Of a stretch of 25,155 bases of DNA, positions 3,746-6,559 are shown in pieces. The notes under the pieces are model-generated. The model did no database searches, was not told the DNA's origin, and saw only the letters and a program-made list of their open reading frames with translations. The stretch lies in IMG/VR virus record IMGVR_UViG_3300049595_001462, positions 1 to 25,155 of that record; one strand, given 5' to 3'. A program made the translations under genes and the position numbers. Position 1 is the stretch's first letter. The number at the start of each line of letters is the position of its first letter. Source of the DNA: a virus.

Positions 3746-4194
3746 TGCCCGGCGGACGCCCTAGCGATTACACGCCAGCAATAGCCGATGCATCGCCTCT
3801 CACGAACGCAGAGAAGGTTCCCCTTGTTCTCGCCCTCATAGAGGCAGGACAAAGCGAACGATCAGCCTGTGAAGAAATCGGGATTAGCCGATCAACTTTC
3901 AGGACGACGGCGCTCCGCGTCTCTTCGGGCGACCACTACGCGCGCGCGCTTGAGGGTTTGGCGCTTGATCAGGTCGAGAAGCTTGAGGCGACCATTCAGG
4001 ATATGCGCGACGGAACGCTTGACCCTGCTATCGGTCGAATTGAGGTTGACGCGCGTAAATGGTTTGCCAGCAAGTTTCTGCCGAAGCGGTTTGGCGACAA
4101 GGTTGAGGTCGAGCATTCGGGTTCGGTCCAGACGCAGACGGATGATCAGCTTGAGGCCCGCATTGCCGCGCTGATGGCGACGAATGCTCGCTGA
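3745..4194 (+). CDS. terS: Terminase small subunit
   Basis: The 149-aa length is typical for small terminases. A helix-turn-helix-like segment lies at residues about 37-58 (GQSERSACEEIGISRSTF), as expected for pac/cos DNA recognition. It is followed by a helical oligomerisation region with RKWFASKFLPKRFGDKVEVE at 104-123, a segment seen in many phage TerS proteins of the HTH type. The gene overlaps terL by 11 nt. TerS forms a ring that selects phage DNA and stimulates the large subunit. Assignment rests on this motif plus adjacency to terL. Confidence 0.9.
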   Translation: MPGGRPSDYTPAIADASPLTNAEKVPLVLALIEAGQSERSACEEIGISRSTFRTTALRVSSGDHYARALEGLALDQVEKLEATIQDMRDGTLDPAIGRIEVDARKWFASKFLPKRFGDKVEVEHSGSVQTQTDDQLEARIAALMATNAR

Positions 4195-6559
4195 CCTGTC
4201 AACGGCGCATAAGCTTGAGCTGCTGTCGCTGCTTGAGGAGAAGGACCGGCGGGCGCGTCAACGCAAGCTCTGGACCTATTACCCGGACACAGGCCCGCTA
4301 AGGCGCGAGCTATACAAAAAGCACTTAGCGTTCTTTGCTGCTGGCGTGACGCATCGTGAGCGCGCGGCGATGGCTGCTAACCGGGTTGGCAAGTCTGAGG
4401 GGATTGGAGCGTATGAGGTCACGCTACACCTGACGGGCCTTTATCCTGACTGGTGGCCCGGTCGGAGGTTCAAGAACCCTGTCAACGTGCTTTGCGGTGG
4501 TGACACGGGCACGACCACGCGAGACATCATCGTCGCCAAGCTGCTAGGCCCTGCGTCGGATCGCGGGACGGGCATGATTCCGGGTGAGTGCATCGAGAAG
4601 GTCCGGCCTAGCGCGGGCATCCCCGATGGCGTTGACTTCGCGGTCATCAAGCACGTCTCGGGCAAGTCGAGCATCGTCCAGTTCCGCTCATACGACCAAG
4701 GGCGCGAGGCATGGCAAGGGACGGAACGTGATGTCGTCTGGTTCGATGAGGAGCCGCCGGAAGCTGTTTACACCGAGGGGTTGCTCAGGACGCTGACGAC
4801 GAAGGGCATGGTGCTGGCGACCTTTACCCCGCTGCGGGGCCTGACAGACGTTGCGCTGGCCTTCCTGCCGGAGCATGGCGGCAAGTTCTGCGTCCAGATT
4901 GACTGGGATGAGGTTCCGCACCTTTCCGACGAGGACAAGGCGGACCTGATGAGTTCAATCCCGCCTTACCAGAGAGAGGCGAGAACGAAGGGCATCCCGG
5001 CGCTAGGGTCCGGCGTGATCTATCCGGTGGCCGAGTCCGCGTATCTAGTCGAGCCGTTTGAGATACCGCGACACTGGCCACGGGCGTTCGCGATGGACGT
5101 GGGCTGGAACCGGACGGCTGCGATCTGGGGCGCTTGGGATAGGCAGTCCGATGTCGTCTATCTGTATGATGAGCATTATCTAGGCGAAAGCCCTCCGCAG
5201 ATACACGGGGACGCGATCAAGGCTAGGGGCTGGTGGATACCGGGCGTGATTGACCCGGCTAGTTCAGGGTCTAATCAGAAAGACGGAACGGCGTTGAGGG
5301 ATGAGTATATTACCCTTGGGCTGGACTTGGAGAGCGCGGACAATACCGTTGAGGCGGGTATTCACGCGGTTTATAGACGTTTGGCGTCTGGTAGGTTAAA
5401 GGTCTTTAGAACGCTGCCTAACTTCATGTCTGAAATCAGGCTTTATCGCCGTGATGAGAAGGGCAAGATAGTGAAGGACCGCGATCACCTGATGGACTGC
5501 TTTACAGGCGACACGTTGGTACAGACGGAGGACGGTCCAGTTCCTATCATTGATCTGGTCGGGACGACTGGTCGCGTTGTTACTGTTGGCGGTGGCGTTG
5601 CTGAATACGAAGCCTGTCAGAAATACGGACACAGAAACACGGTTCGCCTGATTTTCGATGATGGGTCGGAAGTCAGATGCACGCCAGACCATCGCTTCCT
5701 TACGGAAGACGGATGGGTTGAGGCTGTTGATCTTGAGGGGATGCTTTGCGATACATACGATGTATCTAGCAGCATCGGGTCTAGCCAATGTCAGTCGTCG
5801 TCGTCTCACCAACCATTCAAGAGTTCGGCGGCAAACGATATTATCTGTGCGGAAAGTATTTCCAGCGCGACGGCTCGCGCCTTCATGTCGTTGTGTGGGC
5901 CAGCGCGAATGGTCCTGTCCCGGCTGGTCACCATGTCCACCACAAGGACGAAGACCGATCAAACAACCGGCTCGAAAATCTGGAGCTTCTCACCGCGTCG
6001 GAACACGTGTCGCATCACCAAAGCGGGCATAGTCGAGCGTTATCGCCGCTGGCGCTTAAGCGTGCTGCGGAGTGGCATGGGAGCGAAGCTGGCATTGAGT
6101 GGCATCGTCAACACTATCTCGACGTTGCTGACAGGATGCACGCGCGGGTCGCTCGCTCTTGCGACCAATGCGGCAAGGAATACGATGCCCCTGCTAATGG
6201 CGTGGCGCGGTTCTGTTCAGGCGCGTGCAAAACACGATGGCGCGTCAAGTCCGGGGTGGACGATGTATCGAGAGACTGCGCGTCATGCGGTTCTGTCTTC
6301 ACCGTCAACAAGTATGTATCGCGCCAGCATTGCTCCAAAGATTGCGCCAAAGCGCTGCGTGAGCGTAAGCGAAGCGGGCAAAGCTGATGTTTACTGCCTG
6401 ACGGTTCCCTCAACGGCGGCTTTCGTGTTAGGAAACGGCGTGACGGTTCACAACTGCGCTAGGTATCTGATCATGTCGGGAATGGCGCGGGCGATGACGG
6501 AACCTGTAGAGCATTACCAAGCGCCAGTGCGCGGTCAATCCAGCGTGACGGGATACTAG
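4184..6559 (+). CDS. terL: Terminase large subunit precursor, interrupted by an intein
   Basis: The 791-residue precursor encodes the packaging ATPase-nuclease. The ATPase domain shows a variant Walker A AANRVGKS (residues 64-71), Walker B VVWFDEE (184-190) and coupling motif ATFTPLRG (212-219). The RNase H-like nuclease has aspartates in FAMDVGW (D305), VIDPAS (D357) and DHLMD (D434/D438). Cys439 begins an intein of 319 residues ending VHN at 757. Cys758 is the +1 extein residue, giving a spliced protein of 472 aa with a restored DHLMD-CARYL junction, a normal TerL length. Splicing is therefore needed to complete the nuclease region. The gene overlaps terS and abuts the portal ATG. Confidence 0.95.
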   Translation: MLADLSTAHKLELLSLLEEKDRRARQRKLWTYYPDTGPLRRELYKKHLAFFAAGVTHRERAAMAANRVGKSEGIGAYEVTLHLTGLYPDWWPGRRFKNPVNVLCGGDTGTTTRDIIVAKLLGPASDRGTGMIPGECIEKVRPSAGIPDGVDFAVIKHVSGKSSIVQFRSYDQGREAWQGTERDVVWFDEEPPEAVYTEGLLRTLTTKGMVLATFTPLRGLTDVALAFLPEHGGKFCVQIDWDEVPHLSDEDKADLMSSIPPYQREARTKGIPALGSGVIYPVAESAYLVEPFEIPRHWPRAFAMDVGWNRTAAIWGAWDRQSDVVYLYDEHYLGESPPQIHGDAIKARGWWIPGVIDPASSGSNQKDGTALRDEYITLGLDLESADNTVEAGIHAVYRRLASGRLKVFRTLPNFMSEIRLYRRDEKGKIVKDRDHLMDCFTGDTLVQTEDGPVPIIDLVGTTGRVVTVGGGVAEYEACQKYGHRNTVRLIFDDGSEVRCTPDHRFLTEDGWVEAVDLEGMLCDTYDVSSSIGSSQCQSSSSHQPFKSSAANDIICAESISSATARAFMSLCGPARMVLSRLVTMSTTRTKTDQTTGSKIWSFSPRRNTCRITKAGIVERYRRWRLSVLRSGMGAKLALSGIVNTISTLLTGCTRGSLALATNAARNTMPLLMAWRGSVQARAKHDGASSPGWTMYRETARHAVLSSPSTSMYRASIAPKIAPKRCVSVSEAGKADVYCLTVPSTAAFVLGNGVTVHNCARYLIMSGMARAMTEPVEHYQAPVRGQSSVTGY
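5498..6454 (+). mobile_element. TerL intein with a nested out-of-frame endonuclease
   Basis: Intein residue 1 is Cys (5498-5500) in block A CFTGDTLV. Block B is TPDH (intein residues 62-65) within VRCTPDHRFLTEDG, and WVEAVDL follows. Block F is VYCLTVPSTAAFVL and block G is VTVHN, followed by Cys+1 (6455). All residues expected for class 1 splicing are present. Splicing blocks occupy only intein residues about 1-97 and 297-319. The 200 codons between read as Ser/Arg/Thr-rich low-complexity sequence in the TerL frame, because the real coding signal there is the HNH gene in the -1 frame (5788-6387). The insertion point, directly after the nuclease DHLMD motif, is typical of inteins that target conserved active-site DNA. 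Confidence 0.93.
5788..6387 (+). CDS. HNH homing endonuclease nested out of frame in the TerL intein
   Basis: This complete 199-aa ORF lies in the -1 frame relative to terL. Residues about 14-77 match the HNH_3 type: GGKRYYLCGKYF, RLHVVVW (31-37), GHHVHHKDEDRSNNRLENLE (48-67) with catalytic-type His51/His52 and Asn59/Asn60/Asn64, and H73/H76/H77. Two zinc fingers follow: C125-C128-C143-C147 and C164-C167-C182-C186. An in-frame TAG at 5782-5784 lies just before the ATG, so it is not fused to the upstream intein. The Shine-Dalgarno is poor (GGG at 5777-5779). It ends just before intein block F. The product presumably cleaves intein-less terL alleles. Confidence 0.92.
   Translation: MSVVVVSPTIQEFGGKRYYLCGKYFQRDGSRLHVVVWASANGPVPAGHHVHHKDEDRSNNRLENLELLTASEHVSHHQSGHSRALSPLALKRAAEWHGSEAGIEWHRQHYLDVADRMHARVARSCDQCGKEYDAPANGVARFCSGACKTRWRVKSGVDDVSRDCASCGSVFTVNKYVSRQHCSKDCAKALRERKRSGQS

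What the first reader, a model, noticed from the sequence alone, without database searches (positions are those of the whole stretch)
5498..6454. Intein whose homing endonuclease is encoded in a different, overlapping reading frame
Seen: terL carries a complete set of intein splicing blocks (A, B, F, G; Cys1, TPDH, VHN, Cys+1) in one frame. A complete HNH_3 plus double-zinc-finger endonuclease (5788-6387, 199 aa) lies in the -1 frame inside it. The HNH ORF has its own ATG, an in-frame TAG immediately upstream (5782-5784), and a TGA just before block F. It is exactly 600 nt, so the splicing frame stays open across it and yields about 200 Ser/Arg/Thr-rich residues. Established: endonuclease domains of inteins are normally fused in frame and excised with the intein. 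Inference: this is a composite element, a mini-intein invaded by a free-standing HNH gene, in which one 600-nt stretch must encode both a working nuclease and a splicing-tolerated linker. The nuclease would be made by separate internal initiation, uncoupling homing from splicing.
Basis: partly seen in the sequence, partly recalled or inferred. Interest (0 to 1): 0.95.

Follow-up and report, generated by a model that had tools for sequence, protein, structure and literature searches.

The report
Intein hiding an out-of-frame homing nuclease
A phage DNA-packaging gene carries a self-removing protein insert whose DNA also encodes, in a second overlapping reading frame, the nuclease that probably spreads it; about a hundred divergent relatives share this double-coding layout, so it is a real and widespread kind of mobile element and not a sequencing error.

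Summary
terL (4184-6559) contains a 319-aa intein (5498-6454), and a complete 199-aa HNH gene (5788-6387) lies inside it in the -1 frame. Independent contigs are identical, so it is not an assembly error. Nor is it unique: of 106 non-redundant loci with a relative of this HNH out of frame between intein halves, 96 keep the splicing frame fully open (88 in -1, 8 in +1); 11 would be expected after synonymous shuffling. The survey found no in-frame case in an unbroken intein. Open loci have 0 stops against 267 expected; the third frame (1461 against 1481) and un-nested HNH genes (76 against 76) show no depletion. The HNH frame is conserved in sequence; the linker is only stop-free and predicted disordered, while its flanks fold as a complete intein. 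A 94%-identical phage lacks exactly the 957-bp element. Free-standing, mini-intein and split-intein relatives occur. Best reading: a mini-intein that captured a free-standing HNH homing gene, translated separately. Splicing and homing are untested. Closest precedent: the ShiLan out-of-frame HNH (no intein). A preprint on non-canonical actinophage inteins could not be read and may overlap.

The parts
4184..6559 (+). terL, large terminase ORF interrupted by the intein (spliced product 472 aa)
   Evidence: Pfam Terminase_6N 5.8e-15 and Terminase_6C 3e-8; ORF open end to end
5498..6454 (+). intein, 319 aa in the terL frame, inserted DHLMD|C-ARYL in the TerL nuclease domain
   Evidence: Cys1/TPDH/HN/+1Cys; NCBIfam N- and C-splicing regions; natural empty allele L056 lacks exactly this stretch
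5498..5764 (+). N-terminal splicing half (blocks A, B; TPDH at 5681-5692)
   Evidence: AlphaFold2 pLDDT mostly above 90 for residues 1-about 88; Hint fold matches
5765..6331 (+). splicing-frame linker, about 189 aa, predicted disordered; same DNA as most of the HNH gene
   Evidence: pLDDT below 50 at residues 90-278; stop-free in the splicing frame; in relatives no amino-acid conservation beyond that of the third frame
6332..6454 (+). C-terminal splicing half (blocks F, G); its first about 18 codons overlap the HNH 3' end
   Evidence: AlphaFold2 pLDDT 90-98; intein_Cterm
5782..5784 (+). TAG closing the HNH frame just upstream of its ATG
   Evidence: sequence; 54 of 96 open relatives also have a stop within 15 codons upstream
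5788..6387 (+). out-of-frame (-1) HNH homing endonuclease gene, 199 aa
   Evidence: HNH_3 1.1e-19; phrog_15471 1.9e-47; purifying selection in this frame in relatives
5878..6009 (+). HNH catalytic domain
   Evidence: residues 31-74 of the HNH protein; H51, H52, N60, H73 invariant across 28 relatives
6160..6345 (+). two C-terminal zinc-finger modules (CxxC...CxxxC twice)
   Evidence: C125, C128, C143, C147 invariant across 28 relatives; the second finger is absent in some relatives
6455..6559 (+). C-extein of TerL (CARYLIMSG...)
   Evidence: contiguous with the N-extein in the empty allele L056

Best explanation
This is a composite mobile element. A mini-intein (class 1 type) in the TerL nuclease domain carries a captured, still self-contained HNH homing-endonuclease gene between splicing blocks B and F, in another reading frame. 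Ribosomes reading terL pass through the 600 nt in the splicing frame and make a disordered linker of about 190 residues that is excised with the intein, giving intact 472-aa TerL. Separate internal initiation at ATG 5788 makes the free 199-aa HNH protein, which cuts empty terL alleles at or near the insertion site, so that recombination copies the whole 957-bp element. Shown here: the double-coding architecture; selection for a stop-free splicing frame together with amino-acid conservation of the HNH frame across about 100 relatives; empty alleles; an intact predicted Hint fold. Inferred: protein splicing, internal initiation in this phage, cleavage and homing.
For: Family: 96 of 106 non-redundant out-of-frame loci open in the splicing frame against 11.0 expected; third frame 0 of 106. 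In the open loci 0 stops against 267 expected; third frame 1461 against 1481; un-nested HNH genes 76 against 76. HNH third codon positions diverge most, and splicing-frame identity equals third-frame identity. Complete Hint fold with both halves at high pLDDT and a disordered linker; matches NpuDnaE, NpuDnaB and SspDnaB inteins. Empty allele L056: 94% identity on both flanks, no gaps, exactly the intein missing. HNH starts carry SD-like sites of 5 nt or more in 35% of cases against 4% of other NTG codons, p = 3e-15. Mini-inteins without HNH at the same kind of TerL site (L154, L169, L176). Free-standing HNH relatives beside terL in isolated phages. Same layout in phages TJE1, Highwayman and LS06 and in a Janthinobacterium chromosome.
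Against: The window's own ATG 5788 has only a 3-nt SD-like match, although its terL start is equally weak. The rise in identity next to the empty site is only weakly suggestive of co-conversion. No transcript, protein or cleavage data exist. In some relatives the HNH frame stays open far upstream, so for those a frameshifted fusion is not excluded.
Confidence: 0.87

Rival explanations
1. Chance open frame: the HNH gene simply happens to leave the terL frame open, or a pair of indel errors shifted an in-frame HNH.
For: The offset-1 frame of this HNH family has few expected stops in GC-rich genomes; about 25 relatives have p above 0.2 individually.
Against: Joint openness 96 of 106 against 11.0 expected, also in genomes of 29-40% GC; identical sequence in independent assemblies. 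No in-frame relative of this HNH in an unbroken intein.
Confidence: 0.01
2. RNA-level removal: the HNH sits in a self-splicing intron nested inside the intein, so the splicing frame is never translated across it.
For: HNH genes are common in phage group I introns; a relative, L005, has an intron-like, stop-containing HNH insertion elsewhere in the same terL.
Against: An intron would put no pressure on the frame across it, yet stops are depleted only in that frame and the two intein halves stay in frame. No Rfam match even at E up to 1.
Confidence: 0.04
3. The HNH is reached by -1 (or +1) ribosomal frameshifting from terL, giving a TerL-N/intein-N/HNH fusion, not by internal initiation.
For: The HNH frame is open far upstream in a minority of relatives, and most share the -1 frame.
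Against: TAG 5782-5784 blocks entry upstream of the ATG here; 54 of 96 relatives have a stop within 15 codons upstream; SD-like sites at the HNH starts; starts conserved near the HNH N terminus.
Confidence: 0.06
4. The HNH is not a homing enzyme but a TerL helper in packaging (as HNH proteins are in HK97-like phages), retained for the phage's benefit.
For: It is tied to terL; free-standing relatives sit next to terL; HNH partners of terminases are known (discussed in PMC10448857).
Against: Near relatives lack the element altogether (L056, L055, L057), and it lies between intein splicing blocks, as homing domains do.
Confidence: 0.08
5. The element is a split intein in practice: translation in the terL frame aborts and the two halves trans-splice.
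For: Split relatives exist with intein halves as separate ORFs around the same HNH (L091, L098, L099, L103, L019, Vibrio phage 1.238).
Against: In the window and 95 other loci the frame is open, and the stop depletion shows that reading through matters.
Confidence: 0.02

Closest known systems
ShiLan domain and Pacc40 gp60 insert: out-of-frame HNH in phage DNA methylases (Arsenault, Gosselin, Gogarten 2025, PMC11855218)
   Same: HNH plus zinc fingers, about 195 aa, in another frame than the host gene, host frame left open, presumed homing, separate translation proposed
   Different: No intein splicing blocks and no splicing; the insert stays in the methylase. Here a complete intein surrounds the HNH, the host gene is TerL, about 100 loci share it, and selection on both frames was measured
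Fractured genes with split inteins and a free-standing endonuclease between them (Dassa et al. 2009, cited in PMC6892783; MIJ3 PolB split intein with HNH, PMC6892783)
   Same: Intein plus independently translated endonuclease gene at one locus
   Different: There the intein is split and would trans-splice, with consecutive genes; here one unbroken frame crosses the endonuclease gene. Split relatives of this same family do occur (L091, L103, Vibrio phage 1.238)
Classical intein with in-frame homing-endonuclease domain
   Same: Endonuclease between blocks B and F, Hint fold, insertion in a conserved active-site motif
   Different: The endonuclease is a separate protein in another frame. The same scan found one in-frame HNH intein, in a portal gene (L200), with a more distant HNH type
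Mycobacteriophage TerL inteins (Kelley et al. 2016, PMC5050341)
   Same: Inteins in phage TerL; splicing and endonuclease activity shown there for some
   Different: Those lie in the ATPase domain and two were shown to carry an active endonuclease domain; [quoted passage not shown]
Collaborative homing: free-standing endonuclease beside terL with a terL intron (phage ICP1, PMC10448857)
   Same: Free-standing endonuclease associated with a splicing element at terL; plausible ancestor state
   Different: RNA intron and separate gene; not nested or double-coding
I-HmuI (PDB 1u3e), HNH homing endonuclease
   Same: Only solved-structure match of the HNH profile, E = 1.2e-4
   Different: Intron-encoded (own knowledge); no twin zinc-finger tail; the structural match is not significant (E = 0.22)

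Membership tests
Intein (class 1 type) | Splicing blocks A, B, F, G with Cys1, TxxH, terminal Asn, +1 Cys/Ser/Thr | tested here: met
Intein (class 1 type) | Hint fold formed by the two halves | tested here: met
   AlphaFold2 and Foldseek: NpuDnaE TMt 0.82; a prediction, not a solved structure
Intein (class 1 type) | Protein splicing shown | not testable with these tools
   needs expression
Intein (class 1 type) | Intein-less alleles with exact joining of the exteins | tested here: met
   L056, L055, L057
Classical homing-endonuclease intein | Endonuclease in frame with the splicing domain | tested here: not met
   HNH in -1 frame here; no relative of this HNH in frame in an unbroken intein
HNH homing endonuclease (HNH_3, phrog_15471) | HNH active-site motif conserved and frame under purifying selection | tested here: met
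HNH homing endonuclease (HNH_3, phrog_15471) | Cleavage of the empty allele | not testable with these tools
   needs enzyme assay
Split intein / fractured gene | Intein halves on separate ORFs | tested here: not met
   one open frame in the window; met only in relatives L091, L094, L098, L099, L103, L019, L048
Intron-encoded HNH | Surrounding group I or II ribozyme | tested here: not met
   no Rfam match; stop depletion indicates that translation crosses it
ShiLan-type out-of-frame HNH insert | Out-of-frame HNH, host frame open, no splicing domain | tested here: not met
   out-of-frame and open frame met, but a complete splicing domain is present

The most novel reading that the evidence does not exclude
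Out-of-frame nesting is a general, evolutionarily stable way for self-contained homing genes to ride inside inteins: HNH genes were captured more than once from beside terL into mini-inteins, kept their own start and stop (so in-frame insertion would truncate TerL), and the host frame was then freed of stops. This gives a continuum of free-standing, nested double-coding and split forms, in which homing and splicing are separately expressed and can be lost separately.
Probability: 0.5. Interest if true: 0.88.

Novelty: new variant of a known kind. Interest (0 to 1): 0.79.

Why it matters
It shows a large class of overlapping genes in which one frame is a sequence-conserved enzyme and the other only has to stay open, a clean natural test of how double coding arises. 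It supplies candidate intermediates for the debated origin of homing inteins and split inteins (mini-intein plus free-standing endonuclease). Standard annotation misses these HNH genes: TJE1, Highwayman and LS06 are annotated with only a long TerL over the HNH. The stop-free linkers are also a natural record of what inteins tolerate between blocks B and F.

Tried and rejected
Alignments A1 and A2 were too divergent to seed collection scans; subsets A3 and A4 worked. Linker hydropathy and charge against synonymous shuffles showed no drift towards a more hydrophilic linker. The HNH model gave no significant PDB fold match. A first SD test that took the best of several candidate starts was biased and was replaced by a single-start test. 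The 106-locus set contains only out-of-frame loci by construction, so absence of in-frame cases rests on the wider survey, not on that set. Considered and rejected: assembly indels, chance, RNA intron. The preprint 10.1101/2025.01.02.630785 ('Actinobacteriophage inteins... non-canonical architecture') is not held; PMC11855218 cites it for overlapping frames, so it may describe similar inteins.

Full report
The window is an IMG/VR virus record of 25155 bases. terL runs 4184-6559 and reads without a stop for 791 codons. Residues 439-757 are an intein (5498-6454): Cys1, TPDH in block B, HN at the end, Cys+1; removing it leaves 472 aa. NCBIfam's N- and C-terminal intein regions both pass their cut-offs. 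Inside, in the -1 frame, lies a 199-codon HNH gene (5788-6387) with HNH_3 at 1.1e-19 and a nearly whole-length match to phrog_15471 at 1.9e-47. A contig from another metagenome (L002) carries the same DNA without a difference over 6597 bases, and a second (L003) over 3358 bases, so compensating indel errors are very unlikely.

A scan of viral contigs with the HNH protein returned 35 loci; in most an intein N-half lies upstream and a C-half downstream, with the HNH in another frame. Scans seeded with aligned HNH proteins and, independently of any HNH, with the intein N-half enlarged the set to 208 loci. A profile survey found 97 distinct intervals with the HNH in -1 and the splicing frame open (one of them a duplicate span of L186), 8 with +1 and open, 12 interrupted or split, several mini-inteins of about 130 aa without HNH, and no unbroken intein with this HNH in frame. 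One conventional in-frame HNH intein, of a more distant HNH type and in a portal-like gene, was seen (L200), so the method can see that case. The hosts are large terminases by Pfam and PHROGs.

Is the open frame more than chance? I shuffled synonymous codons within each HNH gene, which keeps its protein and codon usage. Across 106 non-redundant out-of-frame loci 96 are open in the splicing frame, while 11.0 would be expected; the third frame is open in none. Among the 96 open loci the splicing frame has 0 stops against 267 expected, and the third frame 1461 against 1481. Twelve HNH relatives not nested in an unbroken intein (mostly free-standing; L045 from Lactobacillus phage CL2 has intein-like halves on separate ORFs) have 76 stops in the equivalent frame against 75.7 expected. 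So the null is calibrated and the depletion is specific. Loci are related by descent, so 106 is not a count of independent events; but the HNH proteins are mostly 35-55% identical to the query, so the constraint has held over long divergence. For the window alone: 0 stops against 3.6 expected, p about 0.005.

What is selected? In pairs of relatives the HNH third codon positions diverge about two to four times as fast as the first and second, and HNH identity (60-85%) far exceeds the identity of the splicing-frame translation (26-68%), which is about that of the unused third frame. The nuclease is under amino-acid selection; the linker need only be free of stops. AlphaFold2 on the whole 319-aa intein gives high pLDDT (mostly above 90) for residues 1-about 88 and 279-319 and below 50 for nearly all of 90-278. 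Foldseek matches DnaE and DnaB inteins across both halves (NpuDnaE, TM 0.82 by target). The last about 18 HNH codons overlap the folded C-half, so there the DNA is double-coding in the full sense.

How is the HNH made? TAG 5782-5784 lies just before ATG 5788. In 54 of 96 relatives a stop closes the HNH frame within 15 codons upstream. At single best-placed starts, SD-like matches of 5 nt or more occur in 35%, against 4% of other ATG/GTG codons in the same inteins (odds ratio 11.6, p = 3e-15). The window's own start has only GGT, as weak as the start of terL itself, so internal initiation in this phage is inferred from the family and from the upstream stop.

Is it mobile? L056 is 94% identical to the window on both sides of the insertion point without a gap and lacks exactly the 957 bp; L055 and L057 are also empty. 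Identity to L056 is 99-100% in the 100 bp on each side of the junction and about 94% beyond, a weak hint of co-conversion. Insertion is in the TerL nuclease motif...ED-H|C.D..RY, DDHA|CDALRY, DHLMD|CARYL, DHLMDA|TRYL and similar, within about five codons of one another in different TerL families. One relative (L152) appears to sit at an ATPase-domain site.

Where did it come from? HNH relatives stand free between terL and portal in phages PAE1, FBPa53, SN1 and others, on the opposite strand in Salmonella phages, and before terS in Acinetobacter phage BP10. Mini-inteins without HNH occur at TerL sites of the same motif. In another set of relatives the intein N-half ends in a stop near or inside the HNH and the C-half has its own start, e.g. 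L091 ATG 3597 after AGGTGG, or Vibrio phage 1.238: apparent split inteins. An HNH tree intermixes these states (17 changes, shuffled mean 30; well-supported branches force at least 3 changes for free-standing and for nested -1), but many deep forks are unsupported, so the number of captures is not settled. A likely reason that none is in frame: a captured gene with its own stop would truncate TerL if in frame. A likely reason for the excess of -1: in this HNH family the offset-1 frame is cheaper to keep open (2.2 expected stops per gene) than offset-2 (9.5). Both are inferences.

Known relatives. The nearest published case is the ShiLan domain, an out-of-frame HNH in phage methylases without any splicing domain (PMC11855218). 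Split inteins with a free-standing endonuclease between the halves are known (Dassa et al. 2009, cited in PMC6892783). Published mycobacteriophage TerL inteins lie in the ATPase domain (PMC5050341). A preprint on actinophage inteins of non-canonical architecture could not be read and may describe out-of-frame endonucleases; if so, this is an independent and broader instance with selection evidence. I therefore file it as a new variant of a known kind.

Noticed in passing
L005 about 920-2710 (same in L006): This TerL looks invaded three times: an intein C-terminus at Walker A (GVYHHN|TGKT), an intron-like stop-containing insertion with a different HNH ORF between TerL residues about 230 and 234, and the composite intein.
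   Followed up: partly
L007 about 1920-2117: A roughly 200-bp stop-containing stretch at about the same second TerL site as in L005, perhaps a remnant.
   Followed up: no
L200:3001-4000: A portal-like-protein intein with a conventional in-frame HNH domain; served as a check that in-frame cases are detected.
   Followed up: partly
L083 against L077/L081: A frame shift relative to relatives puts HNH and the intein C-half in one frame: decay or an assembly error.
   Followed up: no
L152:371-1222: The same kind of out-of-frame HNH intein at what looks like a TerL ATPase-domain site (RIFLCH|CQHEKD).
   Followed up: no
L048 (Vibrio phage 1.238) and L091, L094, L098, L099, L103, L019, L104, L023, L180; also L045 (CL2) and L051 (BL3): Apparent split-intein versions with the HNH gene between or overlapping the halves; the C-half has its own start, sometimes with an SD-like site at the HNH stop.
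   Followed up: partly
L011, L068, L087, L093, L119, L164, L169, L186 upstream of the composite or mini-intein: A second intein N-half match further upstream: terminases that may be doubly invaded.
   Followed up: partly
L044 (Tetrasphaera phage TJE1), L046 (Acinetobacter phage Highwayman), L049 (phage LS06): Complete phage genomes whose public annotation shows only a long TerL and misses the nested HNH gene.
   Followed up: yes
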